A DNA stretch of 64,000 nucleotides from an uncultured Aquimarina sp. (GTDB taxonomy: Bacteria; Bacteroidota; Bacteroidia; Flavobacteriales; Flavobacteriaceae). This document shows, piece by piece, positions 9,270-64,000 of the stretch. The stretch is taken from assembly GCA_947497175.1 (NCBI GenBank), contig CANMFM010000004.1:496001-560000 (forward strand). Direction: 5' to 3'. Both the position numbers and the translations under genes were made by a program. The notes below the pieces were generated by a model. That model saw only the letters and a list, made by a program, of their open reading frames with translations. It was not told the origin of the DNA and did not search any database. How positions within the stretch are numbered: position 1 is the stretch's first letter; every line of letters starts with the position of its first letter.

Positions 9270-9923
9270 TTAAAAAGTTAAATAAGAATCCATATTTTGA
9301 TCAAACTCTTCGCCAAAGCTTGCCAAATAATCTTCACCAAAGAATTTTTTGAAAGATGCCAAGCCTTTTTCTGTAAGGTGAGGTAATAAAAGGCTCCAAA
9401 TTACTTTTTCTCCATCTTCTTTGGTTTTATCTCCTCTGATCATTTGTTGAGAAGCCCAAAAAAACATCATCATCCATGACGTCACTGCCAAGTTTTTATA
9501 TACTCCTGGCACTGGTTCGGGTTTCATGTTTCCTAATTGAATGGAAAATGCAATAGCCATTTCTATGTCCCGGATTGTTTTATTACAAAGCGATTTCATT
9601 TTGGGCGCAATCAACGCATGTTTAAGCACTTGATTATCCTGAAAAATAAATGAATACTCTTTTTGCAATCTATAATACAGCTGTACATCGTGATGTAGAT
9701 TCTGAAATGAAGGTATACTATTTGCAACCCTTGCATTGGTCAGCTTTTCCCATAACTGATCCGTTATTGATTTTAATAAAGCTTCTTTATCCTTGAAATG
9801 GTAAGTCATATTACCTCTACTCATCTCAAGTGATTTTGCTAATTCAAACAGGTTTACTGCACCATATCCTGATTTATTGAAGACCTTAATAGCCTTATCA
9901 AGTATTCTCTTTTTTGTAGCCAA
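9270..9923 (-). CDS. TetR/AcrR family transcriptional regulator
   Basis: N-terminal HTH: KKRILDKAIKVFNKSGYGAVNLFELAKSLEMSRGNMTYHFKDKEALL. The track's start codon is TTG. Confidence 0.9.
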   Translation of the reverse strand: MATKKRILDKAIKVFNKSGYGAVNLFELAKSLEMSRGNMTYHFKDKEALLKSITDQLWEKLTNARVANSIPSFQNLHHDVQLYYRLQKEYSFIFQDNQVLKHALIAPKMKSLCNKTIRDIEMAIAFSIQLGNMKPEPVPGVYKNLAVTSWMMMFFWASQQMIRGDKTKEDGEKVIWSLLLPHLTEKGLASFKKFFGEDYLASFGEEFDQNMDSYLTF

Positions 9924-9939
9924 AATTTTTCCTTTTCTT

Positions 9940-9993
9940 CAAATATACGAATAATTTTATATTTATGACCACCTTTTTAGTCATATTTGACTA
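9940..9993 (-). promoter_or_regulatory. Putative operon promoter (TATATTTG, minus strand 9947-9940) with upstream operator-like palindrome TAGTCA-TATT-TGACTA (9978-9993)
   Basis: TAnnTTTG Bacteroidota -7 element ahead of the TetR gene; perfect 6-bp inverted repeat with 4-nt spacer just upstream. Confidence 0.45.
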
Positions 9994-10097
9994 TTTGTTA
10001 TTTGTCAATTACACTTCAGCATATTTACGTATTTAAATTGCAAATTCTAAAATGATTTTATTGTATTGATTGAATTTTGACGCATGAAAAAGGAGTA

Positions 10098-12461: not shown

Positions 12462-12766
12462 TAGGTATTTTAAATGTTAAATAATGTGGTTGAAAATAAC
12501 TTCTAAAAAAGAAGGTAGCGCTAAAAAAGTAAGAAAAAACTTCCATTTCTAACTTCTTTTCAAACCTTTTTCATTCGTATTATAACCAATAAATCCAATA
12601 ATTTTATTACATTATATGACTCTTAAAAACAATGTATTACGATTTTTCTCTCAAATCTATCCAAATATTGGGGCTTTCAAAGTATAAAAATGTAAAAGAA
12701 GTATGACTATTTTTTGATTAAATAATGTGACATCTTTCATTCATTTTTACCTTAAATTGTTTTGTA

Positions 12767-42528: not shown

Positions 42529-43851
42529 ATGAGTCCATTTTTTGTAAAAGCAATTCAGTTGCTGCTAAGTTTATCTTTACTTATTGTTTTACATGAGCTT
42601 GGCCATTTTATACCTGCTAAGCTATTTAAAACAAGAGTAGAAAAATTTTACCTGTTTTTTGATATAAAATTTTCACTATTTAAGAAAAAAATAGGAGAAA
42701 CCGTATATGGTATTGGCTGGCTTCCTCTGGGAGGATATGTAAAAATCGCCGGTATGATTGATGAAAGTATGGATAAAGAACAAATGGCAGGACCCCCGCA
42801 ACCATGGGAGTTTAGGTCTAAACCCGCCTGGCAACGTTTAATTATCATGCTAGGGGGTGTTACCGTTAATATCATTCTTGGGTTTTTGATCTATATGGCT
42901 ATTATTTTTACCTGGGGTACAGATCATGTAGGTATCGACGATCTGCCTAATGGATTTGCCATACACGAATCTTTTAAACAATATGGATTTGAAGATGGAG
43001 ATCGAATTATTGCATTAAACGGTAAGGAAGTTGAAGACGTTATAGACGTTAATCATCACTTGTTCATGAGAGATGTAGAAAACATCAGTGTTTTACATCA
43101 AAATGGACAAAAAGAAACTATAGCCATTCCCGAAGATATTGGAACAATTATGTTCGAACAAGGCATTCGAAGACCTTTTATGCCCATATCTGCACCAATA
43201 CTTGGTGGTATAGAAAGTGAATCTGCCGCAGAAAAAGCGGGCCTGCAAGAAGGAGATAAATTTGTTCGAATTAATGGAGAAAAAATTAAATATTGGAATG
43301 ATTTTATGCGCCTTAAAGACGCAGATTCTACCAATACAACAATACAGCTTACCTATGAAAGGAATGGGCAAGAGAATACCGTATCAATAACGCCAAACGA
43401 AGAAGGAATCTTTGGTGTTTACCCCAGAGTAGATTATAATGTTAAACACAAAGATTACTCTTTGGTAGAAAGTATCTCTAAGGGCTTTGAATACGGGTAT
43501 TGGACCTTGCATGATTATGTAGCACAATTTAAGTATGTCTTTACCAAAAAAGGAGCAAGCCAGGTGGGTGGATTTGGAGCCATTGGAAACCTTTTTCCAG
43601 ACGCCTGGAACTGGAAAGCATTTTGGGGGACCACGGCTTTTATATCTATAATACTCGCTTTTATGAATATTCTGCCTATTCCTGCATTAGATGGTGGCCA
43701 TGTTATGTTTTTATTATATGAAATTATTGCCGGAAGAAAACCAAACGATAAATTTATGGAATATGCTCAACTTGTTGGTTTTGTTATTCTTATAGCATTA
43801 TTGTTGTTTGCAAATGGTAATGATATTTACAGAGCGATAACAGGAAAGTAA
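42529..43851 (+). CDS. rseP: RIP metalloprotease RseP (site-2 protease)
   Basis: HELGHF zinc motif, PDZ region, MNILPIPALDGGHVMF. Confidence 0.95.
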   Translation: MSPFFVKAIQLLLSLSLLIVLHELGHFIPAKLFKTRVEKFYLFFDIKFSLFKKKIGETVYGIGWLPLGGYVKIAGMIDESMDKEQMAGPPQPWEFRSKPAWQRLIIMLGGVTVNIILGFLIYMAIIFTWGTDHVGIDDLPNGFAIHESFKQYGFEDGDRIIALNGKEVEDVIDVNHHLFMRDVENISVLHQNGQKETIAIPEDIGTIMFEQGIRRPFMPISAPILGGIESESAAEKAGLQEGDKFVRINGEKIKYWNDFMRLKDADSTNTTIQLTYERNGQENTVSITPNEEGIFGVYPRVDYNVKHKDYSLVESISKGFEYGYWTLHDYVAQFKYVFTKKGASQVGGFGAIGNLFPDAWNWKAFWGTTAFISIILAFMNILPIPALDGGHVMFLLYEIIAGRKPNDKFMEYAQLVGFVILIALLLFANGNDIYRAITGK

Positions 43852-43869
43852 GAAAAAATAAAAAAAACT

Positions 43870-43932
43870 TTTTGAGAACTAAAAAATAGTATATATTTGC
43901 ACTCGCAAAAAGAGAAAAACACTCTATATTTG
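43870..43932 (+). promoter_or_regulatory. Putative promoter(s) of tRNA-Asn: TTTG (43870-43873) / TATATTTG (43891-43898), and a second TATATTTG at 43925-43932
   Basis: Match to the Bacteroidota TTTG/TAnnTTTG consensus upstream of the tRNA. Confidence 0.45.
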
Positions 43933-43944
43933 CAAAGAATAAAT

Positions 43945-44018
43945 TCCTCCTTAGCTCAGTTGGTTAGAGCATCTGACTGTTAATCAGAGGGTCCTTGGTT
44001 CGAGCCCAAGAGGAGGAG
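43945..44018 (+). tRNA. tRNA-Asn (GTT)
   Basis: TCCTCCTTAGCTCAGTTGGTTAGAGCATCTGACTGTTAATCAGAGGGTCCTTGGTTCGAGCCCAAGAGGAGGAG: cloverleaf with 7-bp acceptor stem TCCTCCT/AGGAGGA, anticodon GTT, T-loop GGTTCGAGCCC. Confidence 0.97.
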
Positions 44019-44025
44019 CTTAAAA
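43992..44025 (+). repeat. att-site direct repeat, copy within the tRNA 3' end
   Basis: TCCTTGGTTCGAGCCCAAGAGGAGGAGCTTAAAA, identical to 56596-56629. Confidence 0.95.
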
Positions 44026-44057
44026 GCCTAAATTACAAAAGTAGTTTGGGCTTTTTT
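44022..44057 (+). terminator. Element-encoded terminator following tRNA-Asn
   Basis: AAAAGCCtAAAttAC...GTAgTTTgGGCTTTTTT hairpin and T-tract. Confidence 0.6.
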
Positions 44058-44158
44058 ATGCACTATATCTAGGTTTATGAATATTCATCCCCATTTGAAA
44101 TAAACCCATCTATAATTCAAGTTTATCTTCTTAATTGAATAAAAAAGAGACCAATTAG

Positions 44159-45439
44159 GTGTCCAAATATAATTTGGAGAGACCAACTCTTGACCGAGCT
44201 GTATGCCAATTGTTAAATCTAAATCAATTGGTTATGAATGAAAAATTATCAATTCTGTTTTTAATTAAACGAAACAAACAAAACAAGAAGGGCTTATGCC
44301 CTATCTTCACAAGACTAACCTACCAGAAAAAAAGAAAAGAATTTGCTACTGGATTATTTGTAAAACCTGAAGAATGGGATGCAGGAAATCATATGGTATT
44401 CGCAAGAGGTGTAGACAATCAATTTTTAATAAGTGAACTAATGCTCATCAAACAAAAAGTCAATAAATCATTATTAGCATTACAACTAAAAGACATTGAA
44501 TTTGATGTTAACGATATTTATAACCACGCATTTAAAAAAACTACTAAAGTAGAGATTGAGGTTATTAGCTACTTCCGAGATTATTTGAGTAAAATGGAAA
44601 AGCTTATAGGAAAGGATATTAAAGAATCTACTTGGAAAAAGTTTAACTATGTATGTAATGATTTAGAATCATTTGTTCAATACAAATTTCATAAGATGGA
44701 TATCCCCTTTAGCTTCCTTAAACTGTCGTTTCTAGTGGATTTTGAATACTATTTAAGAACTACAAAGAACCAAAAGCAGATAACTATTAACAAAGCAATT
44801 CAACGCTTTAAAAAGCCTATTAAAGTAGCTGTATCAGAAGGACATTTGGACAAAGACCCTTTCATGTTACATAGATCAAAAACTGTTAAAAAAGAAGTCG
44901 TTTTCCTTACTAATGAGGAGTTGAAAAAACTTGAAGAATATGAGTTTACCCAAACTAGATTACAACAAGTAAAAGATATGTTTGTATTTTGCTGCTATAC
45001 TGGTTTAGCATATACAGAAATGGCTAATCTTAAACCTGATCATATCCAAAAAGGATTTGATAAAAATCTATGGATAAAAATGTCTAGACAAAAAACAGAA
45101 AAGCCGATTTCTATCCCACTATTACATCAAGCAAATGATATCCTAAATAAGCACAGAAATGATAGTCAGTTATTGCCTATAATTTCAAATCAACGATTTA
45201 ATTCTTACTTAAAGGAAATTGCTGAGATTACTGGAATTCAAAAAAGACTTACTCATCATACAGCTAGAAAAACTTTTGCCTCAACAGTATTATTATACAA
45301 TGATGTACCAATGGAAATAGTTTCAGAACTCCTTGGGCACAGTAGTATTACAATTACTGAACAAAGTTATGGTAAGGTTGTACAGAAAAAAGTAAGTGAG
45401 GAAATGCAGAAGCTTATGAAGAAGTGGAGAAAAAACTAA
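44159..45439 (+). CDS. Tyrosine recombinase/integrase (phage integrase SAM-like domain)
   Basis: Catalytic HTARKTFAS (HxxR), LLGHSSI and QSYGKV Tyr; Bacteroidota arm-binding N-terminus. True start is probably ATG at 44234 (MNEKLSILFLIKRNKQNKKG). Confidence 0.95.
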   Translation: MSKYNLERPTLDRAVCQLLNLNQLVMNEKLSILFLIKRNKQNKKGLCPIFTRLTYQKKRKEFATGLFVKPEEWDAGNHMVFARGVDNQFLISELMLIKQKVNKSLLALQLKDIEFDVNDIYNHAFKKTTKVEIEVISYFRDYLSKMEKLIGKDIKESTWKKFNYVCNDLESFVQYKFHKMDIPFSFLKLSFLVDFEYYLRTTKNQKQITINKAIQRFKKPIKVAVSEGHLDKDPFMLHRSKTVKKEVVFLTNEELKKLEEYEFTQTRLQQVKDMFVFCCYTGLAYTEMANLKPDHIQKGFDKNLWIKMSRQKTEKPISIPLLHQANDILNKHRNDSQLLPIISNQRFNSYLKEIAEITGIQKRLTHHTARKTFASTVLLYNDVPMEIVSELLGHSSITITEQSYGKVVQKKVSEEMQKLMKKWRKN

Positions 45440-45657
45440 ATTTCAAAAAACTCTTTTACATCTACATTGATAGCCTTTGCTATTTTCAATAAAGTAAGAG
45501 ATGTTACATTTTGCCTACCATTTTCTATACTAGAAAGATTAGGTTTTTCCATTTTAATCTCCGCACATACATCCAGTTGACTTAACCCTTTTTCCCTTCG
45601 GAGTTTAGCAATGTTTGCCCCTACTAATTTTAAAAATTTCTTTTCTGATGCTGTCAT
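45436..45657 (-). CDS. XRE-family HTH transcriptional regulator
   Basis: GANIAKLRREKGLSQLDVCAEIKMEKPNLSSIENGRQNVT. Confidence 0.9.
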   Translation of the reverse strand: MTASEKKFLKLVGANIAKLRREKGLSQLDVCAEIKMEKPNLSSIENGRQNVTSLTLLKIAKAINVDVKEFFEI

Positions 45658-45764
45658 AACTTAACTATGACAAGGTGGTTAATATCTAAGCTCCAAGGGT
45701 TATGATATATAATAACTATTATCTATATTTATAACTTAATTATTAAACCTATAAATTCTAAACA

Positions 45765-46205
45765 ATGAAAAAACTAATTCTATTATTTACTACCTACTTA
45801 TTACTACTATCTTGTTCTAGCGATGACAATAATGATCAACCAAGTGCTGAAATTGTAGACTACAAACACAGGGTAGTTCTGGTTGCAGAGGGTACTGTTA
45901 ATGATGGTGAGGTCTTTGTAAAAGTGAATCACACTTACGTGCAAGGTAATTCTATAGACGAAACCCACATATTCACATTTAGTGGAGAAAGGTATATCCC
46001 TACTTTAGATAACTCCAATCCATCAAGATTTACTCTTACTAATAATTCTTCATCCATTATGAATATCAACTTTGATGCTGTTAGAGGTGATGGTAACGGA
46101 GGATTCCTATCACCAGATGAAAGAAATGATTTCTTTGTTCTTGAAAGTAATACAACGAAAACAGTCATTTATGATTACAACGAAAAAGAATATTTAGAAC
46201 AATAG
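45765..46205 (+). CDS. Hypothetical lipoprotein
   Basis: Lipobox LLLLSCSSDDN; no recognised domain. Confidence 0.7.
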   Translation: MKKLILLFTTYLLLLSCSSDDNNDQPSAEIVDYKHRVVLVAEGTVNDGEVFVKVNHTYVQGNSIDETHIFTFSGERYIPTLDNSNPSRFTLTNNSSSIMNINFDAVRGDGNGGFLSPDERNDFFVLESNTTKTVIYDYNEKEYLEQ

Positions 46206-46308
46206 AAAAATCTTCATAGGGTCATATTACCCATCTATAAAAGTAAATATGACCTTTTTTACTCTTATATTTATAACTCTCTTTTAATCAAACCTCTACA
46301 CATTCTCT

Positions 46309-46887
46309 ATGAAACCAGCTATACTTTTAATTTTTTCTATTGTCTTAGTTGTTTATAGTTGCAAGGAAGTTGAGCCACCAAAAAAACCGCAACAAGTGGA
46401 GGATAAAATAACTATTTCCGATATAAAAAAAACACTTGAAGATTATAGGCAAAAAAATAAGGGTAATGATTCTATAAGAAAAACTTTAAGTGTAAATGAC
46501 ATTATTACCATCAAATCATTTCACCCTAAATGGAAAGATACAGAAGGGAAATATGACACAAAAATTTCAATTCTACACCAAGTAATAAGAATAGGCAATG
46601 ATGAAAGAAGAACCGTTGATGCAATAAACTATGATATGATAATTACGGATAGATTTGAAAATGAATTATATCGGATTAAGAATCTAACATATGATGAAAA
46701 TTTAGAAGCAGGCGATATCGGTGCTAATTATTCATTATCAGATTTTCCTTCCACCACCATAGAATACAATAAAGATAACAATTCCGTTTTGGAAGAATTA
46801 CGAACATATCATTGGAAACAATTAAAGACCAAGGCAGAAATTAAAGCAATATTATATACCGACGGGGAAGTACTAAAAGCAAATTAA
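46309..46887 (+). CDS. Hypothetical lipoprotein
   Basis: MKPAILLIFSIVLVVYSCKEVEPPKKP lipobox; no recognised domain. Confidence 0.7.
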   Translation: MKPAILLIFSIVLVVYSCKEVEPPKKPQQVEDKITISDIKKTLEDYRQKNKGNDSIRKTLSVNDIITIKSFHPKWKDTEGKYDTKISILHQVIRIGNDERRTVDAINYDMIITDRFENELYRIKNLTYDENLEAGDIGANYSLSDFPSTTIEYNKDNNSVLEELRTYHWKQLKTKAEIKAILYTDGEVLKAN

Positions 46888-47056
46888 AATAATCCTTTAA
46901 CTGATACTATTTCCTTGAGTTCTCGTTTAATTTTTTTTAAAATTTTTTTTACCACTTCAACAAGGTGTGCGCAAAATAACCTAAACATCACCCCTAACCC
47001 TATTTAAATTTTGGGCAATAACCCCCATACCGATTGTTTAATCTAAATTTTGAATT

Positions 47057-47425
47057 ATGACTAATTACAAAGAAATATTTAATGAATTAACAGGAGAATC
47101 TGAATTTGAGTTTAACGCCACTCTAAAGGAAATAGGCACAACAGTTTTACAAAATAGCAATGAAAAAGATTACATAATTGTAACTCTTCAATTTCATCTA
47201 CCCGACGGTGATGAGGTAGAACGCACAGCTATTTGTTATGCTTCAAATTATGAAAAAGGTATTGAAATAGGCAAAGATTATCTATGTAATCTAAGCTTTG
47301 ACGAAAAAGGTAATCCACAAATCAGAATGTCTCATTTAACAAATGCAAAAAGAGCCAACCTAAGTGATTTTGAAGGGTTATTACAAAAGAAAAAACAACT
47401 AATCGACGAAGAATTAGTGATGTAA
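47057..47425 (+). CDS. Hypothetical protein upstream of an AAA ATPase (possible ssDNA-binding-like)
   Basis: Small acidic ORF in a putative replication/recombination module; no confident family call. Confidence 0.6.
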   Translation: MTNYKEIFNELTGESEFEFNATLKEIGTTVLQNSNEKDYIIVTLQFHLPDGDEVERTAICYASNYEKGIEIGKDYLCNLSFDEKGNPQIRMSHLTNAKRANLSDFEGLLQKKKQLIDEELVM

Positions 47426-47449
47426 TGTTCCCAAAATCATCAACAAACG

Positions 47450-47483
47450 AGGGTTTATGCAATTATAGTGTAAACCCTTTTTT
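47450..47483 (+). terminator. Rho-independent terminator
   Basis: AGGGTTTA...TAAACCCTTTTTT hairpin. Confidence 0.7.
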
Positions 47484-47578
47484 GATGTCTATTAGACACT
47501 TAACAAGTTATTAATATGATATAATCAGAACATTAACCTACTATAAACAAAAAAGTTAATCTACTTAAAATCAACATT

Positions 47579-48472
47579 ATGAAATTAAGAAAATCACAAA
47601 GAAAAAATGCCAAAATTAAAATGGCATTACAAGGCAGTTCTGGCTCTGGAAAAACTTATAGCTCATTACTAATTGCAAAAGGTCTAACTGATGGAGATTT
47701 TTCTAAAACAGCCGTTATAGATACAGAAAATGGAAGTGCTGATCTCTATGCGCACTTAGGTCAATACAATGTATTAACATTAAAACCTCCTTTCACACCT
47801 GAAAGTTATATTCAAGCAATAGATATTTGTCTAAAGGAGGGCATAGAAGTAATTATAATAGACAGTATAAGCCATTGTTGGGATGAACTTTTAGACTTTC
47901 ATTCAAGGCTAGTCGGTAATTCATTTACAAACTGGAATAAAGTGACCCCAAGACATAAAGCTTTTATTAATAAAATGCTACAAGCTGATGCACATATTAT
48001 AGCTACTATGAGAACAAAGCAAGGCTATATACTAAACCAAAAAAATGGTAAATATACACCTGAAAAAGTTGGCTTAAAGGCTATTCAAAGAGATGGAACA
48101 GATTATGAGTTTACCTTAGTTTTTGAACTCAATGCTAAACATTTTGCTGTAGCAAGTAAAGACAGAACTAATTTATTCTCAAGTAAATCTGAGTTCATAA
48201 TCAATGCAACTACTGGTAAAAAGATATTGAATTGGTGTAATGAAGGAAATGACACTGAATTAAATAAAGCAGAACAAGAAATAAGTCTCTGTAAAACCAT
48301 TGAAGGCTTAAGGCACATTTTTACTAAACACTCCCAATTGCAAGAACAGTTAAAACCATTAATTCTCAAAAAGAAAAGTGAGATTGAAAATATTGAAACT
48401 CAAATTATCCCAAACTCTCAAGTTATCAGTGAACTTAATAATTCAAAAAACGGGAAAAATGGTAACAAATAA
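47579..48472 (+). CDS. Phage-type AAA/RecA-like ATPase (Sak4/AAA_24-like)
   Basis: Walker A GSSGSGKTYSS, DTENGSADLYA, Walker B EVIIIDSISHCWDE, MRTKQGY. Confidence 0.82.
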   Translation: MKLRKSQRKNAKIKMALQGSSGSGKTYSSLLIAKGLTDGDFSKTAVIDTENGSADLYAHLGQYNVLTLKPPFTPESYIQAIDICLKEGIEVIIIDSISHCWDELLDFHSRLVGNSFTNWNKVTPRHKAFINKMLQADAHIIATMRTKQGYILNQKNGKYTPEKVGLKAIQRDGTDYEFTLVFELNAKHFAVASKDRTNLFSSKSEFIINATTGKKILNWCNEGNDTELNKAEQEISLCKTIEGLRHIFTKHSQLQEQLKPLILKKKSEIENIETQIIPNSQVISELNNSKNGKNGNK

Positions 48473-48589
48473 TATTATCAACGTAAACGATAGCTTATCA
48501 ATAAACAAGGAAAATTTGATAAAAAGAGAAAACCGAATCTACTTAAGAGTTATTATTATATATAGCGGTTTTGTTAATCTTTGTATAAA

Positions 48590-48832
48590 ATGGACATAGG
48601 AGAATTATTGAAATTTAGCACCCCTAAAAGCCTTTTAGTTATCACTTGGAACAATATACTTAAACAGCTTTTTTGTCCTTTTAAAGCTAAGGCAATAAAC
48701 AATATTGGCCACCTAAAGAAAGGGCAAATAGTATGGGTTGAACAAGTAAAAGTTACAAAAGATCTAAAGACTGTATTTATTGTAGATGGGCAAGCATATT
48801 ATTATTTCCATCTAGATATCATAATGGATTAG
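48590..48832 (+). CDS. Small hypothetical protein
   Basis: ORF from internal ATG (MDIGELLKFSTPKSLLVITWNN...); unclassified. Track start is 48581. Confidence 0.45.
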   Translation: MDIGELLKFSTPKSLLVITWNNILKQLFCPFKAKAINNIGHLKKGQIVWVEQVKVTKDLKTVFIVDGQAYYYFHLDIIMD

Positions 48833-48923
48833 ACAGGAGTTATGTTGTATTTTGGATACCCAAGCTTTTGAGACGTTTTCTCCTTATCAAAAAAACACTG
48901 AAAACGCACATATGCATATAATT

Positions 48924-49398: not shown

Positions 49399-50463
49399 AT
49401 GAAAGAAAGAAACTTTCCAAGTAATGAAAAGAGTAAAAAGTCCTTAAATTTCAATGAATTAAGAAACATCCGAGCCAATCAACCAAAAAGAAAATTTCTA
49501 TGGAATGGTATTAAAGAAAAATCATTTGGATTGGTATTTGGCCCTGCCAAAAGTGGAAAAACTATCTTGTGTGAAAATTTGGCAATTAGTGTAGCAATTG
49601 GATCTAAAGAGTATCTAGGTTATAGTATTTCCGAAGGACCTAAAAAAGTTCTCTTTGTTGGTCTCGAAGAGTATTGGGAAGATAGATTTGACAGAAATCT
49701 AAAACAAATAAATGCTCTCAACGAAGAAGAAACAAAGCTATTTGAGCAAAATTTCTTTTACCCTCCTATAGATTTTAAAGATAAAATAGTGACTAGTGAA
49801 GACTGGAATAATTTAAAAGAGCTAATACTAGAAACTGAAGCTGAGGTGATATTCATAGATAGTATTACCAGAATGAATTATGGAAAATTGGAAGATGGAG
49901 CTGTAGCCGAAAAAATAATGCAAAATTTGAGAAGACTATGCCACGAATGCGGTGTTACGATTATTGCAATTCATCATACTCGTAAACTAAATGATGAGCC
50001 AATAACAATGGATTCTCTAAAAGGTAGTAGTGCTTTTGCACAAGAATGTGACTTTGCTATTGGTGTACGTAATACCAACAAAAATCATAAATACTTAAAA
50101 AATATTGTTTTTAGATACGCTTCTTGTAATGATGAATTTGTAAAGGAAATTGAAATGGATGATGATATTTGGTTAAACGTAATCAATGAATCAGACGAAG
50201 ATGAAATATTGAGAAGAACAGATAGAAGAAGAACTGACAACAAAAGAGATCTTATAAGTAAGTATATTAATGAAAATTCTTCTTTGACCTATAAGACGAC
50301 AGATCTTATAAATAGATTTACACTTTCTTTATCTATTAAACCAAGACAAGTACAAACTTATTTATCTGATCTTGTTAATGAAAATAAAGTCCGAAGCCCA
50401 AAAAGAGGCATCTATACCTCAATAAACTATTCTGATAACCCTAACACAGATACAAATGTCTAA
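49399..50463 (+). CDS. RecA/RepA-like AAA ATPase (AAA_25, putative replicative helicase)
   Basis: Walker A FGPAKSGKTILCENLA, Walker B EVIFIDSITRMNYG, IIAIHHTRK. Confidence 0.83.
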   Translation: MKERNFPSNEKSKKSLNFNELRNIRANQPKRKFLWNGIKEKSFGLVFGPAKSGKTILCENLAISVAIGSKEYLGYSISEGPKKVLFVGLEEYWEDRFDRNLKQINALNEEETKLFEQNFFYPPIDFKDKIVTSEDWNNLKELILETEAEVIFIDSITRMNYGKLEDGAVAEKIMQNLRRLCHECGVTIIAIHHTRKLNDEPITMDSLKGSSAFAQECDFAIGVRNTNKNHKYLKNIVFRYASCNDEFVKEIEMDDDIWLNVINESDEDEILRRTDRRRTDNKRDLISKYINENSSLTYKTTDLINRFTLSLSIKPRQVQTYLSDLVNENKVRSPKRGIYTSINYSDNPNTDTNV

Positions 50464-51115
50464 TAAGGAAGGAATAGTTTATAAAGCTGAAAATAAGCTT
50501 ACAGGCACGGTATATATTGGAGTTACCACAAATAGTCTAGAAACTAGGAAAGCAGATCATATTCAAAGAGCAATTAGAGGCGATATGAATGAATTTCAGG
50601 AAGCTATTGGCACCTATGGCCCAGAAGCTTTTACTTGGCAGCAAATTGACACTGCAGCAACTCCAAATGAACTAGCAGAAAAAGAGAAGCAATTTATCCT
50701 TCTGTATAACAGTCAAAAAGAAGGTTACAATCAGGATTCTGGTGGCGGATTCAAGAAAAAGGTTTATCAATATTCTCTAGATGGTGATTTATTAAATGAA
50801 TATGAAGATTTAGCTAATGCAGCTAATGCAGTTAGTGCAGACAAAAGAAGTATCAGCAGTGCATGTTTAAATGTCAATAAAACTTGTAAAGGCTATTATT
50901 GGACATACAACTTTACTGAAAGATATATTCCAGAAGTTGACTTGAGGAAAAAAGTAGTTATCCAATTATCTCTAGATGGGATTGTCATAGCTAATTACAA
51001 ATCTGTTGCTGAAGCTTCAAAACAAACTGGAATTTCCAAGACCTGTATATCCAGAGTATGTAGAAATGAAAGAGAACAAAGTGGAGGTTTTATATGGAAA
51101 TATTTAACTTCTTAA
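50456..51115 (+). CDS. GIY-YIG nuclease with NUMOD-type DNA-binding modules (homing-endonuclease-like)
   Basis: GIVYKAENKLTGTVYIGVTTNSLETRKADH; two C-terminal repeats VYQYSLDGDLLNEYEDLANAANAV and VIQLSLDGIVIANYKSVAEASKQTGISKTCISRVCRNER...GGFIWKY. Overlaps the upstream gene by 8 nt. Confidence 0.88.
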   Translation: MSNKEGIVYKAENKLTGTVYIGVTTNSLETRKADHIQRAIRGDMNEFQEAIGTYGPEAFTWQQIDTAATPNELAEKEKQFILLYNSQKEGYNQDSGGGFKKKVYQYSLDGDLLNEYEDLANAANAVSADKRSISSACLNVNKTCKGYYWTYNFTERYIPEVDLRKKVVIQLSLDGIVIANYKSVAEASKQTGISKTCISRVCRNEREQSGGFIWKYLTS

Positions 51116-51146: not shown

Positions 51147-51180
51147 AATAGCTCTGCCTTAAAATAGGTAGAGCTATTTT
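51147..51180. terminator. Bidirectional hairpin terminator between convergent genes
   Basis: AATAGCTCTgCCT...AGGtAGAGCTATT flanked by T/A tracts. Confidence 0.7.
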
Positions 51181-54100
51181 TCCTTTTCACCAATAATTTT
51201 AACACGTACGCCCCTGCTAGTAAAAACTAAATTACAGTAGTACTGTCCCCCTTTTACAATATCAATTTCGGATTTAAATCTATAAAAATCCCGTCCTAGT
51301 AAATTGATATAAATCTTAAAGTTATTTACACTTTTAATTAAACCAATAAAAATTTTAGGTTTTAATGTTTCCTGGTCAATCCAATTTTCTTGTAGAGACG
51401 GATTTAGGTATTTAAACTCTTTTTTTAAAGCCCCTAAATGTTTATTAGCATAAGAAAACTGTAAATTATAACACTCCTTGATGTACGAGTAGTAGTGGTA
51501 TTTAAAAAAATTACTTTCTTCAAACAATTCAGCATTAAAACTATTCAAAGCCATTCTAGAATCTACATTATATAACCTTTTGCTATGGTAATCAAACAAC
51601 GCCTTTTCAACAATATCTAAATGATGATACTCATTAAGTTCATCAATTATATCTGTCACTGTTAAATTAGCCAAGAATCTATTGCCAAAATCAAAAATTT
51701 TATTCTCTAAAGAATTTAATTTAAATATTAATGCTAAAACCCTAGTTTCCGGATTACTGTATAAATCTTCTATATGCTTTAAAATTTCGGCTTTGGAGAA
51801 TTGGTTAATCCTAATTTCATTTACATATTTGGCTCTTAGTTTTTCAATAAACTCTGTATTTTCAACTACTGATTCATAGGCTTTCACAAACAAATCCTGA
51901 ATTCTTATATGTTGCTCTAACACTTCTTCATCAGTTAGATCCATTTTTGTAATTTTCCACATTTCTAAAGCCAAATAATCATAATAACTATATGAGGAAA
52001 ACGGATCCATGGCTCTCTTGATCTCAAAAAACTCCTTTGCAGCATCAAGATATTCATCTCTCATGTAAGTTTTCCCTACTTTATGGTAATGTTTAGCTAA
52101 ACTAAATTCTATTACTCCTCTAGTATGAGTAATCGCATTATTCCTTTTATCACTTGAGGAATCAATAATCATAAGTCTCTGCGCAGCTTTCTTTAAAGAA
52201 CTTACATTTTTTCTAGACTGCAAATTCCTGGCATAATGTATATTAAATAAAGGATTAATTGTAAAAATCTTGGAAGCTTCATCATATAACTTCTCCAATT
52301 TCTGTCTCTGACTAAATGCCCTATTTTTTCTGATCGCCTTAAATAAATCTACGACAATTTTTGCGTGTTCATCATTTGGATTTAAAGCTCTGATTATTTT
52401 TAAGTACGCTTTTAAAAGTTTATCCTCACTCTTGAATTTATTTTCTATAAATTTTGAAGATATTATTCTGTGCTTCGTCCTGAAAATTAAATCTTCCTTA
52501 ATATCGATAGGTGAAGTAATTTCATTTAAAAGCAAACCTTTACCATCAACCCTTAGTACATTAACTTTAAACTCATCCCAATCCATATTTATTATCTTTT
52601 TCAATATACTTGCTGGCATAGGGATTTTATATTGATAAAGTAGCGAAGTAAACTCAAAAGCTATTCTAGCTTCTGAATTAATTTGATCTAAATTGTCAGA
52701 AATGGCCCTTAATAATGTACTGTTTTCAATAAGTGATAACATAGTTACATAAGGATCAGAATCATATGCTTGTCTAATTTTATCCCTTATCTTTGTTTCT
52801 TCTTGTTTATCCCTAACTGTAATTAATTTATGCGTTTTCAACTTAGAGATTAAATCATCTATTTCGTCATCTGCTAATTTATGATCTACTTCTAATTTGT
52901 GTATATTTTGATATCTATAATTACGTAAGTTTTTTTCTAACATATTTTCCCTTATTGGAGCTAGAATAGATATATTTTTGTTGAACTGATGTTCACTTAG
53001 AGCTACTCTAAATGCCATTAACTCTTTGAAATAAGTATGTCTTTCCACATTATCCGCAAGGAGTATAATGTTTTCAGACGAACTAGCATCAAATAGTTCT
53101 TCAAGATCCTGTGCCCTAAGCCCATTTATTTCTACTAATTCAAATGCCACATAACCCTCTTGTTGTTGTAACCTATTAATTACTCTTAATGCGGAAGTAG
53201 TTTTCCCAATTCCATTTCCACCAACTATAAAATTGACTGGGATTAAATTACTATTGATTCTAGAACTTAAAACACTTTCCATTACAACTTTGTTAAGTTG
53301 TTTTTTATCCACATCCAGATTATCTAGAATTATTGAATAATTAGGCTCTGCTCCCCTGTAGTAACTATCAGGACGGATATTATTTTCTCTATTATTTTTA
53401 TGTAATTGCTTTAAATTGTTTCTCAACCTAAGATTTAATTTCGCATTAATCTGAACAGGATTATCGTTATTATAATATACTTTAGGTAGTTTTTTTATTT
53501 GTCGATTATACCTTTCTTTTGCCCAATTATCATAGTGCTCAAAGAATTGAGATGCACTCATCCTGATTGTTATTACATTCTTCTCCTCCAAAAAAGGTAC
53601 TAAGGCTTCATTGGGAAACGGATCTATGTTAAATATTTTCCTATCATTTTTTAGATTATTTTTATTTAACTCTTTCAATAGTCTTTTCGAAATCCCATCT
53701 GTAAATGAATACCCTATAGATAAAAAACTAACATCATTAGTCAATGAAGAAAAATTGGATAATACTTTATTATAAAAAGGTTTGTTATCCTGAAAATCTT
53801 GGGTTGAAAAAACAAATTTATATTTTGAAAGATCTGACAAACAACCATTAAGTTTAATATACTTAATCTGATCTTTGGAGATTATTTTTTGATACTCACT
53901 AACACTTCTTACAGGCAATATCTCCTTATATTCATCTGCTTTTCCATGGATTTGAGAATATGCTTCTTCTAATAGCAAATCCATATTTGTTGTAACTATT
54001 TGACGCCAACCCATTGAAACCACTTTTTTATGAGTATCTTCTGGTTCCAATTTTTGCAAGAGTTGTTTTACATACTGATCAAATTGTTGCCTAGAAAAAG

Positions 54101-54326
54101 TTTCAAGTTTAGATGCCCTATCTATAAATTCCACTAAATCTTTTGTCTCTAAGTCAACTCTAAGTTTTTCCTGATATAAATTGACTAATGTTGAGCCTAG
54201 ATAATTCCGTTTCTCAGTATATGAAAAGCCTGCACCTAAAAAAAGAACCGTATTCTCATTAAACATATTTGGAAAAATACTTTCTTCCAAAAATTCAACC
54301 GTTTTATTATTATTTCTTAAATCCAT
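51174..54326 (-). CDS. SIR2-like domain + STAND-type P-loop NTPase protein (putative anti-phage NADase)
   Basis: N-terminal SIR2-like motifs VLFLGAGFS, WRQIVTTNMDLLLEEA, IKYIKLNGCLSDL, FLSIGYSFTD; central Walker A FIVGGNGIGKTTSALRV and Walker B ENIILLADNVERH; long alpha-helical C-terminus. Confidence 0.85.
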   Translation of the reverse strand: MDLRNNNKTVEFLEESIFPNMFNENTVLFLGAGFSYTEKRNYLGSTLVNLYQEKLRVDLETKDLVEFIDRASKLETFSRQQFDQYVKQLLQKLEPEDTHKKVVSMGWRQIVTTNMDLLLEEAYSQIHGKADEYKEILPVRSVSEYQKIISKDQIKYIKLNGCLSDLSKYKFVFSTQDFQDNKPFYNKVLSNFSSLTNDVSFLSIGYSFTDGISKRLLKELNKNNLKNDRKIFNIDPFPNEALVPFLEEKNVITIRMSASQFFEHYDNWAKERYNRQIKKLPKVYYNNDNPVQINAKLNLRLRNNLKQLHKNNRENNIRPDSYYRGAEPNYSIILDNLDVDKKQLNKVVMESVLSSRINSNLIPVNFIVGGNGIGKTTSALRVINRLQQQEGYVAFELVEINGLRAQDLEELFDASSSENIILLADNVERHTYFKELMAFRVALSEHQFNKNISILAPIRENMLEKNLRNYRYQNIHKLEVDHKLADDEIDDLISKLKTHKLITVRDKQEETKIRDKIRQAYDSDPYVTMLSLIENSTLLRAISDNLDQINSEARIAFEFTSLLYQYKIPMPASILKKIINMDWDEFKVNVLRVDGKGLLLNEITSPIDIKEDLIFRTKHRIISSKFIENKFKSEDKLLKAYLKIIRALNPNDEHAKIVVDLFKAIRKNRAFSQRQKLEKLYDEASKIFTINPLFNIHYARNLQSRKNVSSLKKAAQRLMIIDSSSDKRNNAITHTRGVIEFSLAKHYHKVGKTYMRDEYLDAAKEFFEIKRAMDPFSSYSYYDYLALEMWKITKMDLTDEEVLEQHIRIQDLFVKAYESVVENTEFIEKLRAKYVNEIRINQFSKAEILKHIEDLYSNPETRVLALIFKLNSLENKIFDFGNRFLANLTVTDIIDELNEYHHLDIVEKALFDYHSKRLYNVDSRMALNSFNAELFEESNFFKYHYYSYIKECYNLQFSYANKHLGALKKEFKYLNPSLQENWIDQETLKPKIFIGLIKSVNNFKIYINLLGRDFYRFKSEIDIVKGGQYYCNLVFTSRGVRVKIIGEKEK

Positions 54327-54602: not shown

Positions 54603-56225
54603 TCAATTATTTTCAAAAATATTTGTGAGATTGAAGCTTTTGGATAAATTGATTGTGATTATAGGGTTTTGACCAAAACCAAAGTACTTTCGAATATCGC
54701 CACTTAGTTTAATTCCAAACTTTTTTTCCATAAGGTGGAATTGAAAAGCACCAAAAAACCACCAGTCGGTATCCGAACCACTTATAGAAAAGCCCGGAGT
54801 ACCTCCACCAAAAGTTGGATAAAAAAATGCCTGCATATATTTATTATTATATAATATTGGAGACCCTACGCCATAATAACCGCTAAAATATTTTCTTGTT
54901 CTATCCCTGTTTTGTGTAATTAATCTTTGTAATGGACGATTATTTGACAATGAATCTATGGAAATTGTGAATCTATCTAATGGAAATAAATCCTCGTCAG
55001 TACTCGAGAACTCTTCCCTTCTTTCTATAGCTTCAAAATGAGCAGAAACATACCACTCAAAATTTTCAGATTTCTTTAAATTAAAGATTACATCAAAGTA
55101 CAAACCTAAATTCTCGTAAGAAACACTAGGGGTTCTCAACACACGCTTTCTTTCAATAGTTATGGAATCATTTGTTATCGAATTTTCTACTACCTGCACA
55201 AGTTCAGTATCTCTTCTATCTTCTTCCAATTCTCCCGAGACACTATTATTTTTATAAATCCCTCCTCTAAAACCAAATTTTCCAATCAGATTCGGTAGAA
55301 AAACATCAATTTCAGAATAGAAACTGTTAGCTTCAAATCTATCTTTTAAATCAAAATTAGTTCCAATATAAAAGTTGTACTTTCTGTTTTTGATTTCGTT
55401 ATAATTATAACCCTCTTTATCTACGCTTTTAGTTACTATGACTAGTTTTTTGTTCTGATCACTAATTTTTATTTGGCTATTGGAAACATGTTTAATTTTA
55501 GTGATCTCAATTTCTAATTTATCTTTATTCACTATAGAGTCTAAGGCTACCAAGAAACTATCGATAGTTTTTTCACTTGATTTAATCTCTATTTTATAGG
55601 AGGTTTCCGATCCAATCAAATTAAATTCTTTAGTATATTCCTTTAAAACATCTATTTTGTCAAATTCTGGGATTTTTACTTCAAAAAATACAGAATCAAT
55701 TTCCTTAGGAGAGTAACCCTGTGAATTAACCTTAAATGGAATAGTCAATTCCTTGTCTTTACCAGAATCTATTGAAACTATTTCTAAAGATTCCTTAAAC
55801 CCTATTTTAGCGCTCGGCACTTCAACCTTCTCTAATAAGACCGTATGACTATTATTTACAATTATCACATTAGAATTCTTATCTTTTTTTCTAATTGTAA
55901 GAGTTATGTGTTTCTTATTTCCTACAGCAGTTTTATTTATTGGAATCTTTACAGTCTTATCATTATCATTAATATCAAGGACAATATCCATCCCTTTCAA
56001 ATTCGTAATTCCAAAAAGTATTTCTTCATCCTTCGTATCACTAAGTATTTCTAGTATGACCTTAGAATTAGATTTCTTCGATTGTTGTTTATTAATATCC
56101 AATTTGACTTCTATAGAAGATTTTGTAAAGTCAAATGATTGATTTGGAACGGTGAAGCCAACTTGTGTTTGAGCATTCATCAGGTTTACTAAAAGTAATG
56201 CAATTAGTGCGAATTTGATTTTCAT
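54603..56225 (-). CDS. Hypothetical exported protein, possibly outer-membrane beta-barrel
   Basis: Signal peptide MKIKFALIALLLVNLMNAQ; C-terminal half with alternating aromatic/polar strands (NFYIGTNFDLKDRFEANSFYSEIDVFLPNLIGKFGFRGGIY). Confidence 0.65.
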   Translation of the reverse strand: MKIKFALIALLLVNLMNAQTQVGFTVPNQSFDFTKSSIEVKLDINKQQSKKSNSKVILEILSDTKDEEILFGITNLKGMDIVLDINDNDKTVKIPINKTAVGNKKHITLTIRKKDKNSNVIIVNNSHTVLLEKVEVPSAKIGFKESLEIVSIDSGKDKELTIPFKVNSQGYSPKEIDSVFFEVKIPEFDKIDVLKEYTKEFNLIGSETSYKIEIKSSEKTIDSFLVALDSIVNKDKLEIEITKIKHVSNSQIKISDQNKKLVIVTKSVDKEGYNYNEIKNRKYNFYIGTNFDLKDRFEANSFYSEIDVFLPNLIGKFGFRGGIYKNNSVSGELEEDRRDTELVQVVENSITNDSITIERKRVLRTPSVSYENLGLYFDVIFNLKKSENFEWYVSAHFEAIERREEFSSTDEDLFPLDRFTISIDSLSNNRPLQRLITQNRDRTRKYFSGYYGVGSPILYNNKYMQAFFYPTFGGGTPGFSISGSDTDWWFFGAFQFHLMEKKFGIKLSGDIRKYFGFGQNPIITINLSKSFNLTNIFENN

Positions 56226-56595: not shown

Positions 56596-56629
56596 TCCTT
56601 GGTTCGAGCCCAAGAGGAGGAGCTTAAAA
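56596..56629 (+). repeat. att-site direct repeat, distal copy
   Basis: TCCTTGGTTCGAGCCCAAGAGGAGGAGCTTAAAA, identical to 43992-44025. Confidence 0.95.
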
Positions 56630-61185: not shown

Positions 61186-64000
61186 TTATTCGTCATCTAC
61201 AAGTATCGGAATTATAGTACCTAGATGAAGTCCAGTATTCTCTCCAAGAATTGTTTTTACACCTTCATCAAATCCAGGAATGTTTTCAATAACTTTGCCT
61301 ACACCGAAACTGGATATTTCTACAACGGCTCCAGTCGCAGCACTATTGTAATCTCCTTCAATAAAATCAAGAGTAATATTTAATCCAGCTCCAATTCCTG
61401 AGATAGTTCCTCCAATTCCTGCAATCTCTGGCGCAAAAGGACCTGCTAACGGAGCTACAACAACCATTGTATCTCCAGTGTTTTCAAGAGTCTTAGCACT
61501 ATCTCTCCCAACTTTTATTGCTGTTTTAGCAACTTCTTTGTTAATAGTCTTCAAACCACTACCAATTTCAGAAATATCCTGAACTTTACTTACAGACATT
61601 CCTGATATACCAGAGCTCTGTTGATTAGTTTCTTGATTAGTAAGTTCTGTTTCAATTATCTTACCAGTCCCCTTTAAAACCTGATTTCTTGCAACTGCTG
61701 TATTATTTTTAAGAGAAACTACTATGTCTGTAACATACATGGCTAAGCCCCAACCTGCTAACTCTAAACCTTCTAGCTCTACACCCATTCCCATTTTATT
61801 CTCCTGAAAAGCATAGGTAGCATTATAAGTATAATCTTCTGCCAAAGGATCTATTTGCCAGAATCTACCTATAGCTGGATCACTTACGCGAAATCTCCAC
61901 TCATGGGTATTTAATCCAAGGTCTTCTGTAAATTCTTGATCCTGATAAGTCTTGAAATTATTTTTAGCCCCTATCAAAAGAGTATTATACCCTTTATGTT
62001 CAAGTCCAAATGGATAATAATTCTGTTCTCTGCGAATCTCGGAAGATGCTATAGATCCATCATTATTATCATCTGCATAAGTAATTCGAGTATTTCTCCA
62101 GATGTCTTTATACCTGTATACATATTGATATCCTCCAGAAGTTTTTGGTTCCAGATATCCTTCCGGATGCGATATTTGCTTAATTGAGCCATTTTCATAG
62201 ACATATCCACTTACATACTCCATATTGGTTATATCACTTCCATTGGTAACGATTTTTTTCAATTTCCCACCGGAAGCATCATAAGTATATCCAATTGAAC
62301 CAGCATTTGCACTATTGCTTATAGCAACTGTTTCAGGTAGGTTTAGGTGGTTATAGGTAATGCCGGTGATGCCTTTGTTACGATCTATAATCATATTGCC
62401 ATTGGCATCGTATTCAAAATCATCGTTGGTATTGGTGCCGTCTTTAAATCCATGGTCTTTGCTTCCTGTATCTGTTACTTTTAAGAGTTTGTTACCGGTA
62501 TCATACATATAGGATAAGATATCCATATCTCCAAAAGTGGTTGCCCCAGCATTGGTATGCCCTTTACGGTTTAAGGATAGTATGTTACCCATCTTGTCAT
62601 AAGACACATTCGATAAGTCATACCTGCCATCATTACTTACTCCACTAGTAATTCTATTGAGTGCATCATAAGTATAGGCATAACTTCGGGTTACATTATC
62701 ATTAGCGGTTTGCCATGAGGTAGCCGAGATATTACCATTATACAATGGGTTTATACCTGTATTGTAATCTATGGCAAAACCAAATAATTTTCCTCCTGTT
62801 GTAGTACCTTCATTAATGGCTTTTAACCAACCCCTTATGTTGTAGTCGTAGTCTACATCTTGCAAGCCACCTCCAACAGTTTTTGATTGTAGTTGTCCTA
62901 ATTCGTCGTAGGTATTGGATACAATCACTTCTTCTGCCTGATTATTGATCTTTTGGGTTTGTGTAAGCAATCGACCCATATGATCATACGTAAAGGTATC
63001 AAGGGTTACAATCGGTGCATTGCTATCTTTGGTGTGGGTGGTCTTGGTTTGTAAGACTCTACCTGTAAAATCGAGTTTGGTTTCTACAATATCAATTGTA
63101 TTAAGATATTTATTCTTGCTAACTACATAAATAGGTCGACTCTTTTTATCGTAATACGTTACTGTAGTAATCCAATCGTTTGTACCCAATACTCTTACTT
63201 TGGTACCTGTAGGCAAAGATTTTGTAGCATTGCTTATGGACTCCCCCAGACTGGTGCCTGGATTAGCAAATATAGCATCTTCGCTATCCAAAAATTGATA
63301 ATCGTCGTAATAATTGATTGTATATATTCCAAAACCTCTTGTTGGACGCGCATTCTTGGTATAATAGACTTTTGTGCTCGAGTTATCAAATGGAGTATCT
63401 ACTCTTTTTTCATCATGAATAGTTTGACTATCGTACCTGCCCTGTGATACCTTACGGGTACTCCCATTAATATTATATCCAGTATAGGCTATCCTGCCAA
63501 GAGCATCATATTTGGTAAATAGCCACGTATCCCATTGCTCTCCAGAATTTATCTTTCTCATATTTGCATCCTGGGTCATTGTAGGTCGATCCAACACATC
63601 GTAGATAATGTATTCCCATCCTTTTCCTGGGATTTTCTTTTCGATAAGTCTATTTCGCTTATCATATCTATACTGATAACACAGTTCTGAAAGTTCGTTG
63701 GCAGATACACTATCAGATACGGTTACCTTGGGCGGGATTACATAAGAAAGATTCCCAAAACTATCATAAACATAATAGGTATCGTGGGCCTCGGCAACAG
63801 CAACACTGGTTGAAGCATAGCTTCTTTTTAGAATCACTCGTCCTAATTTGTCTTTATACTCTCGGGTGGTATGATTATTCCCATCGGCTTCTGTCCAGTT
63901 TTCATCTTTGGTAATGTTTACCTGCAACTGGTTAGGTGGATAAAATCCGTTCTTTTGCAATGTAGGCACCTCTGTATTTGACGGATTAGCAAAAACAACT
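61186..64000 (-). CDS. RHS/YD-repeat protein, C-terminal portion with RHS core and variable C-terminus (5' end outside the window)
   Basis: Multiple YD repeats (YDSFGNLSYVI, YDKRNRLIEKKIPG, YDALGRIAYTG), RHS core WRFRVSDPAIGRFWQIDPLAEDYTYNATYAFQENK; frame stays open from the track's GTG start at 63969 to the window edge. Confidence 0.92.
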   Translation of the reverse strand, partial: VVFANPSNTEVPTLQKNGFYPPNQLQVNITKDENWTEADGNNHTTREYKDKLGRVILKRSYASTSVAVAEAHDTYYVYDSFGNLSYVIPPKVTVSDSVSANELSELCYQYRYDKRNRLIEKKIPGKGWEYIIYDVLDRPTMTQDANMRKINSGEQWDTWLFTKYDALGRIAYTGYNINGSTRKVSQGRYDSQTIHDEKRVDTPFDNSSTKVYYTKNARPTRGFGIYTINYYDDYQFLDSEDAIFANPGTSLGESISNATKSLPTGTKVRVLGTNDWITTVTYYDKKSRPIYVVSKNKYLNTIDIVETKLDFTGRVLQTKTTHTKDSNAPIVTLDTFTYDHMGRLLTQTQKINNQAEEVIVSNTYDELGQLQSKTVGGGLQDVDYDYNIRGWLKAINEGTTTGGKLFGFAIDYNTGINPLYNGNISATSWQTANDNVTRSYAYTYDALNRITSGVSNDGRYDLSNVSYDKMGNILSLNRKGHTNAGATTFGDMDILSYMYDTGNKLLKVTDTGSKDHGFKDGTNTNDDFEYDANGNMIIDRNKGITGITYNHLNLPETVAISNSANAGSIGYTYDASGGKLKKIVTNGSDITNMEYVSGYVYENGSIKQISHPEGYLEPKTSGGYQYVYRYKDIWRNTRITYADDNNDGSIASSEIRREQNYYPFGLEHKGYNTLLIGAKNNFKTYQDQEFTEDLGLNTHEWRFRVSDPAIGRFWQIDPLAEDYTYNATYAFQENKMGMGVELEGLELAGWGLAMYVTDIVVSLKNNTAVARNQVLKGTGKIIETELTNQETNQQSSGISGMSVSKVQDISEIGSGLKTINKEVAKTAIKVGRDSAKTLENTGDTMVVVAPLAGPFAPEIAGIGGTISGIGAGLNITLDFIEGDYNSAATGAVVEISSFGVGKVIENIPGFDEGVKTILGENTGLHLGTIIPILVDDE

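What the first reader, a model, noticed from the sequence alone, without database searches (positions are those of the whole stretch)
51174..54326. SIR2 + STAND-like NTPase protein carried by the island: candidate anti-phage NADase
The 1050-aa protein combines an N-terminal SIR2-like fold (FLGAGFS, VTTNMD, SIGYSFTD), a central P-loop module (GGNGIGKTT; ILLADN) and a long helical C-terminus that could be a sensor. This layout resembles Avs-type/SIR2-STAND anti-phage proteins, in which SIR2 depletes NAD+ on phage recognition. Its place as the largest cargo gene of a mobile island, transcribed opposite to the replication-like genes and behind its own terminator, fits a defence cargo. The C-terminal sensor region is not recognised here and may be new.
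Basis: partly seen in the sequence, partly recalled or inferred. Interest (0 to 1): 0.8.

Follow-up and report, generated by a model that had tools for sequence, protein, structure and literature searches.

The report
Bacterial SAMD9-like SIR2-STAND defence protein
A small mobile DNA island in a flavobacterium carries one large gene that looks like an intracellular virus alarm: a sensor tail ending in a cold-shock/OB (nucleic-acid-binding type) fold, an NTP-driven switch, and an enzyme head predicted to destroy NAD+ and shut the cell down; the same order of parts is found in the human antiviral protein SAMD9.

Summary
In detail: window 51174-54326 (minus strand) is an intact 1050-aa protein with a SIR2_2 head (Pfam 9.5e-16), a STAND NTPase (nSTAND_NTPase5, just over cut-off; full Walker A) and a TPR-like helical tail. 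The unrecognised end is now identified: residues ~979-1047 form a five-stranded cold-shock/OB-type barrel (model pLDDT 94; family profile hits CspA at 1.7e-8), degenerate in this clade but obvious in relatives. Foldseek ranks EfAvs5 first and human SAMD9 second; SIR2-STAND-TPR-OB is the SAMD9 core order. So it joins an Avs5-like head and switch to a SAMD9-like tail, in a family spread over several phyla. Its SIR2 "catalytic" His is Asn (KLNG), kept across its clade; published Avs5 work shows this NG variant is functional, and the tree suggests a separate origin here. The island is confirmed: tRNA-Asn, Tyr integrase, perfect 34-nt att repeats 12.6 kb apart. A congener carries the same island backbone (88% DNA identity) with an unrelated predicted defence operon in the same slot. 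Abortive NADase defence is the best reading; NADase activity, phage trigger and OB ligand are inferred, not shown. New variant of a known kind.

The parts
51174..54326 (-). 1050-aa SIR2-STAND-TPR-OB protein, whole gene
53571..54251 (-). SIR2 domain (residues 26-252): GAG motif, TTN114xD116, GYSF
   Evidence: Pfam SIR2_2 9.5e-16; family columns G31, G33, N114, D116, G161 invariant or nearly so
53847..53849 (-). Asn160 codon: NG in place of the canonical catalytic HG
   Evidence: alignment and tally
52944..53366 (-). STAND NTPase core (residues 321-461), Walker A GGNGIGKT 369-376, Walker B-like ILLADN, Arg459
   Evidence: Pfam nSTAND_NTPase5 2.5e-8; K375 invariant in all compared rows
51417..52427 (-). 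helical TPR-like tail (residues ~634-970)
   Evidence: model: helices from 634 to 970, pLDDT mostly above 80; family profile matches TPR proteins
51186..51392 (-). C-terminal five-stranded cold-shock/OB-type barrel (residues ~979-1047)
   Evidence: models pLDDT 85 and 94; profile vs CspA 1.7e-8; Pfam CSD in 20 of 38 relatives' C-termini; Foldseek top cold-shock domains TM ~0.6, E weak
51147..51178 (.). terminator-like hairpin between the GIY-YIG gene and the 3' end of the SIR2-STAND gene
43945..44019 (+). tRNA-Asn(GTT), integration site
43992..44025 (+). left att repeat (34 nt, tRNA 3' end and 6 nt beyond)
56596..56629 (+). right att repeat (34 nt, 100% identical)
44159..45439 (+). tyrosine integrase
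   Evidence: Pfam Phage_integrase 3.4e-14 plus SAM-like and Arm domains
47579..48472 (+). AAA_24 ATPase, island backbone
   Evidence: Pfam 2.8e-17; conserved in island twin L128
49399..50463 (+). AAA_25/RepA-type ATPase, absent from island twin
   Evidence: Pfam 4.2e-24; no counterpart in L128
50456..51115 (+). GIY-YIG/NUMOD1 homing-endonuclease-like gene, edge of the cargo slot
   Evidence: 74% DNA identity in L128
54603..56225 (-). 540-aa protein with signal-peptide-like start, second gene of the variable slot, unknown
   Evidence: no Pfam match over cut-off; no match in 49 other genomes of the genus

Best explanation
It is a stand-alone abortive-infection immune receptor of the STAND class carried as swappable cargo of a tRNA-Asn integrative island. 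In the resting cell the TPR-like tail and C-terminal OB barrel would hold the NTPase closed. A phage product (protein or nucleic acid) recognised by that tail would let the NTPase bind NTP and oligomerise. The SIR2 heads would then be packed into an active form that breaks down NAD+, stopping phage growth at the cost of the cell. Shown here: the domains and their order, the intact Walker A and SIR2 pocket residues, the NG variant, the OB barrel, the family and its tree, the island and its cargo swap. Inferred from Avs5 and related systems: autoinhibition, oligomerisation, NAD+ breakdown, phage trigger. Open: whether the degenerate OB barrel still binds nucleic acid or is only a protein surface.
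For: Pfam SIR2_2 and nSTAND_NTPase5. AlphaFold model with pLDDT 85. Foldseek: EfAvs5 4.5e-21, SAMD9 7e-20, DSR2 1.5e-9, ThsA 1.4e-8. The family profile matches EfAvs5 in both the SIR2 part and the NTPase-tail part. Walker A Lys and SIR2 N114/D116/G161 are invariant in all rows compared. Avs5 with the same NG motif hydrolyses NAD+ and defends; Asn153 there is needed, His only partly replaces it, Ala or Gln abolish (PMC12931631). The same island carries another predicted defence operon (PRTase-CE, ORC-CDC6-like, CARF-like, N6-MTase, DUF4365) in the same slot of a congener. Neighbours of ten clade relatives include type I RM, DNA MTases, Hhe, PDC-S37, RT, PD-Lambda-4_A.
Against: No experiment. 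The canonical catalytic His is absent; H171A variants of DSR2 and an H146N variant of KomC appear in the PDB, apparently as mutants (inferred from the entry names), so Asn may be inactive in some SIR2 contexts. The NTPase Pfam score only just passes its cut-off. Whole-model pTM is 0.53, so the domain arrangement is uncertain. The neighbourhood tally has no matched control.
Confidence: 0.74

Rival explanations
1. A SIR2-STAND receptor whose SIR2 domain no longer hydrolyses NAD+ but binds NAD+ or ADP-ribose, as a regulatory or structural head; the effect would come from oligomerisation or from a partner.
For: His160 is replaced by Asn in the clade; another family clade carries Met at this site (L036, L053, L055, L059, L060); SAMD9 itself keeps a variant SIR2-like domain while its effector is the AlbA/tRNase domain (PMC5445408, PMC13245274).
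Against: All other pocket residues checked are strictly kept, and Asn is kept in 10 of the 11 clade sequences outside the HG sister pair, at about 33% identity; PaAvs5 with NG is an active NADase (PMC12931631). No other effector domain is visible in the protein.
Confidence: 0.15
2. A receptor for non-phage invaders (plasmids, rival islands) or for stress, that guards the island itself rather than the host against phage; also possible as an exclusion module.
For: It sits on an integrative element beside replication-type genes; SIR2-type defence can also act on mobile elements other than phages (e.g. SIR2-APAZ short Argonautes act against mobile genetic elements, abstract of PMC10474274); no native trigger is known.
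Against: Relatives lie on chromosomes and plasmids and next to RM systems, so function is not tied to this element.
Confidence: 0.1
3. Ordinary NAD-dependent protein deacetylase with an unrelated helical tail.
For: SIR2 fold; 'deacetylase' in some database names.
Against: It falls with the SIR2_2/ThsA/Avs5/DSR2 NADases rather than with classical sirtuins, and is fused to a STAND NTPase.
Confidence: 0.01

Closest known systems
Avs5 (AVAST type 5; EfAvs5 9jap, PaAvs5)
   Same: SIR2 head, STAND NTPase, helical repeat tail; best Foldseek and profile match over head and switch; NG motif also common in Avs5 (PMC12931631)
   Different: Avs5 relatives are 790-849 aa and lack the OB barrel; Pfam nSTAND3 is reported for PaAvs5 (PMC12931631) and nSTAND_NTPase5 is found here; His619, kept in this family, is Ser in the Avs5 set; holding the NG part of this clade together with Avs5 is rejected, p 0.0003, whereas the whole clade with Avs5 is not, p 0.16
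SAMD9/SAMD9L family (animals, with bacterial members)
   Same: Core order SIR2-like, STAND NTPase, TPR, C-terminal OB most similar to cold-shock domain (PMC5445408); Foldseek rank 2, TM 0.36-0.38 over ~1280 columns
   Different: No AlbA/tRNase, SAM or kinase domain here; canonical Walker A GKT where SAMD9 has GG(T/S) (PMC5445408); SIR2 pocket intact apart from the NG change; low global TM, so the domain arrangement is not shown to match
DSR2 (defence-associated sirtuin 2)
   Same: SIR2 head with large helical tail; significant Foldseek match
   Different: No Walker A in the DSR2-type sequences aligned here; the PADLOC Dsr2 model, which recognises controls, does not match P0001
ThsA (Thoeris)
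   Same: SIR2 NADase domain family
   Different: ThsA has no STAND NTPase and no TPR/OB tail (general knowledge; its match here covers the SIR2 part only)
Plasmid 'SIR2 family protein' of ~1045 aa (Hymenobacter, Klebsiella, Psychrobacter, Acinetobacter)
   Same: Same architecture including the OB barrel
   Different: Annotated only as SIR2 family protein; all but the Hymenobacter one have HG in the SIR2 site

Membership tests
Avs5 | N-terminal SIR2_2 domain with GAGxS and TTNxD | tested here: met
Avs5 | STAND NTPase homologous to that of Avs5, with Walker A | tested here: met
   family profile matches EfAvs5 372-765 with E 1.3e-12; GKT intact
Avs5 | Groups with Avs5 in a tree to the exclusion of OB-bearing proteins | tested here: inconclusive
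   quick tree puts it with OB-bearing rows (support 87-92, not starred); grouping the whole clade with Avs5 is not rejected, p 0.16
Avs5 | Match to a reference Avs5 model | not testable with these tools
   the PADLOC-DB 2023 copy does not recognise even EfAvs5 relatives as Avs5, so its silence on P0001 says nothing
Avs5 | NAD+ loss on phage infection; jumbo-phage activator (JADA-type) | not testable with these tools
   needs experiment
SAMD9 family | Order SIR2-like, P-loop STAND, TPR, OB (cold-shock type) | tested here: met
SAMD9 family | Walker A with Gly in place of Lys (GG(T/S)) | tested here: not met
   GKT; K375 invariant in all rows; criterion from PMC5445408
SAMD9 family | N-terminal AlbA_2 (or bacterial Ser/Thr kinase) domain | tested here: not met
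   SIR2 starts at residue ~26; no such Pfam domain
DSR2 | Match to DSR2 model | tested here: not met
   no match, while controls L072 and L074 match at 3e-142 and 0
ThsA/Thoeris | Full-length ThsA match and neighbouring TIR (ThsB) gene | tested here: not met
   P0001 gives no ThsA model match; no TIR match among the island proteins scanned; neighbours outside the island not scanned
tRNA-targeting integrative island | tyrosine integrase next to tRNA, direct repeats of tRNA 3' end, variable cargo | tested here: met

The most novel reading that the evidence does not exclude
A widespread, uncharacterised bacterial family of SIR2-STAND-TPR-OB receptors that joins an Avs5-type NADase head and active STAND switch to the SAMD9-type tail, in which the cold-shock/OB barrel takes part in sensing nucleic acid or translation-related ligands; it would be the prokaryotic counterpart nearest in architecture to the human SAMD9/9L core, with the His-to-Asn change of the SIR2 site reached independently in this clade.
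Probability: 0.3. Interest if true: 0.75.

Novelty: new variant of a known kind. Interest (0 to 1): 0.55.

Why it matters
SAMD9/9L are human antiviral proteins with disease mutations, and what their tail and OB domain sense is unsettled; a compact bacterial relative in architecture with an active-looking NTPase would let phage genetics ask what such a tail detects. The Asn kept in place of the sirtuin His, apparently reached separately from Avs5, adds a second natural test of the NG chemistry recently reported for Avs5. The island twin gives a defined slot in which defence cargo is exchanged.

Tried and rejected
(1) 'Catalytic His lost, hence dead enzyme': my first reading of N160; dropped as main reading because PaAvs5 with NG is active (PMC12931631) and the rest of the site is kept. 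(2) PADLOC silence as proof of a new system: rejected after a control showed EfAvs5 relatives are not called Avs5 either. (3) Clean empty site: not found. The closest genome G017 has one att copy and the same downstream gene but about 4.7 kb of other DNA in between. (4) Phage collection: no relative of P0001 in 50,697 phage records; only two in viral contigs. (5) Foldseek with the isolated OB model gave cold-shock domains first but no E below 0.04, so the sequence-profile result carries that claim. (7) PF25199 across the phylum gave mostly generic ATPases below cut-off; among 16 hits at or near the cut-off looked at, six have a clear SIR2 head and the rest other N-termini. (8) The first OB profile was not built because of a script fault; repeated.

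Full report
Observation. The ORF at 51174-54326 lies on the minus strand, encodes 1050 aa and is intact. Pfam finds SIR2_2 at 9.5e-16 and nSTAND_NTPase5 at 2.5e-8, 34.3 bits against a cut-off of 34.0. It is the only SIR2_2 protein found in its genome.

Island. tRNA-Asn is at 43945-44019, followed by a tyrosine integrase. A 34-nt stretch covering the tRNA 3' end recurs without mismatch at 56596-56629. The 28-nt core occurs at these two places only in the genome. The element is thus about 12.6 kb and contains the SIR2-STAND gene and a 540-aa protein as its right-hand cargo. In congener G021 the same element sits in the same tRNA with its own att pair: 88% DNA identity over window 43390-48911, 74% in the GIY-YIG gene, then no similarity until the right end. 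The slot there holds PRTase-CE, ORC-CDC6-like, CARF-like and N6-methylase genes, then DUF4365, i.e. a different predicted conflict system. In the closest genome, G017, there is a single att copy and the same downstream gene, but about 4.7 kb of unrelated DNA between them, so a clean empty site was not seen.

Family. Full-length relatives at about 30-36% identity occur in Bacteroidota, Acidobacteriota and Ignavibacteriota, and more distant ones (15-20%) of the same length in Pseudomonadota, Planctomycetota and others. The protein is rare: 7 of 392 genomes of the order match at E 0.001 or better. No phage record has one; two viral contigs hold more distant relatives.

C-terminal domain. In most relatives the last ~65 residues read as a cold-shock domain with the usual aromatic patches. 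Pfam CSD is the family found most often when 38 C-termini are scanned singly, in 20 of 38, best 1.4e-6; the window's own C-terminus gives no Pfam match. A profile of the 38 finds CspA at 1.7e-8 and then a long list of cold-shock proteins. The window protein's C-terminus modelled with its relatives gives a five-stranded barrel, pLDDT 94. Foldseek lists YBX1 and Csp domains near the top with TM about 0.6, though with weak E values from 0.04. Relatives outside the profile-building set match the profile too: L141 2e-17, L142 2e-13, L002 1e-8, L004 4e-10, L009 1e-9. In the window's clade the aromatic positions are largely lost, so nucleic-acid binding there is uncertain. EfAvs5 relatives and DSR2-type proteins lack the domain.

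Fold. AlphaFold2 with 39 sequences gives mean pLDDT 85.1 and pTM 0.53: domains are reliable, their arrangement is not. The best PDB matches are EfAvs5 (4.5e-21), human SAMD9 (7.2e-20, TM 0.36-0.38), then DSR2 and ThsA. By sequence profile EfAvs5 matches in two stretches, SIR2 and NTPase-to-tail. Mekhedov et al. 2017 define the SAMD9 core as AlbA, SIR2-like, STAND NTPase, TPR, and an OB most similar to cold-shock proteins, and report bacterial members (PMC5445408). The Avs5 paper also notes the likeness of Avs5 to SAMD9 (PMC12931631). What this window adds is a family that has the OB tail of SAMD9 together with an intact Walker A and an intact SIR2 pocket. I found no paper in the held library describing SIR2-STAND-TPR-cold-shock proteins as a defence family; the library lacks most subscription papers.

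SIR2 site. Position 160, the canonical catalytic His (HG), is Asn in P0001 and in 10 of 13 distinct clade members counted (P0001 included); one has Cys, and the sister pair L002/L017 has His. Most of the rest of the family has His; a mainly planctomycete clade has Met. N114, D116 and G161 are invariant throughout. Holding the NG members with Avs5, to the exclusion of the HG sister pair, is rejected at p 0.0003; holding the whole clade with Avs5 is not rejected at p 0.16 (the groups were chosen after seeing the tree). So the Asn was probably gained separately from Avs5; a gain in a common ancestor followed by reversal in the sister pair is less simple but not excluded. In PaAvs5 the NG motif is functional and Asn153 is required (PMC12931631), so NG is not evidence of a dead enzyme.

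Switch. Walker A Lys375 is invariant in all rows, and Arg459 is kept in all clade rows. Walker B Asp425 is Asp in P0001 but Asn in 4 of 13 clade members. His619 in the winged-helix-like region is kept in nearly all OB-bearing rows and is Ser in Avs5; by analogy with STAND proteins it may be the nucleotide-sensing His (inference).

Context of relatives. Among 121 neighbouring ORFs from ten loci (nine clade loci and the Hymenobacter plasmid), PADLOC at 1e-20 finds type I RM subunits, DNA methylases, Hhe, PDC-S37, a reverse transcriptase and PD-Lambda-4_A. Pfam finds resolvases and an MvaI/BcnI enzyme. There is no matched control, so this is supportive only. A Psychrobacter plasmid copy lies directly beside a type I RM operon.

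Mechanism. The best-supported chain is: sensing by the TPR/OB tail (inferred), NTP-dependent opening and oligomerisation (inferred from STAND proteins; Walker A shown), and NAD+ breakdown by clustered SIR2 heads (inferred from Avs5, ThsA and DSR2; pocket shown), ending in abortive infection. Confidence 0.74 for NADase-type defence. The main rival is a non-hydrolytic SIR2 head (0.15).

Novelty. The parts and their order are known from Avs5 and SAMD9. The combination of NADase-type SIR2 head, intact STAND NTPase and cold-shock/OB tail, the apparently separate NG gain and the swappable island slot make it a new variant of a known kind. It is not a member of SAMD9 proper (Walker A and AlbA tests not met), and membership in Avs5 is unresolved.

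Noticed in passing
L128 (G021:C6:130500-147784), 644-13482: Twin of the window's island in the same tRNA-Asn with a different cargo: PRTase-CE, ORC-CDC6-like, CARF-like, N6-MTase, DUF4365.
   Followed up: partly
window 50456-51115: GIY-YIG/NUMOD1 homing-endonuclease-like gene kept in both islands at the edge of the variable slot; may help cargo exchange.
   Followed up: no
window 49399-50463: AAA_25 (RepA-type) gene present here but missing from the island twin, so the variable part may start before the GIY-YIG gene.
   Followed up: no
window 54603-56225: 540-aa protein with signal-peptide-like start, no family, no match in 49 other genomes of the genus; second cargo gene on the same strand upstream of the SIR2-STAND gene.
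   Followed up: partly
L036, L053, L055, L059, L060: A mainly planctomycete clade (one member from a Bathyarchaeota MAG) of the same protein family carries MG in place of HG in the SIR2 site.
   Followed up: no
clade rows (e.g. L010, L011, L016): Walker B Asp is Asn in 4 of 13 clade members while Walker A stays intact.
   Followed up: no
L129 (G017:C23:830400-850000), 649-5414: About 4.7 kb of other DNA between tRNA-Asn and the flanking gene in the closest relative; may be a different insertion at the same site.
   Followed up: no
L149, L151, L154, L159: nSTAND_NTPase5-like domains with N-termini other than SIR2 in Bacteroidota (not classified further), i.e. the switch looks modular.
   Followed up: partly
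window 61186-63969 and L128 15802-16959: RHS-like repeat protein genes downstream of the island in both genomes (judged from sequence, no family search run).
   Followed up: no
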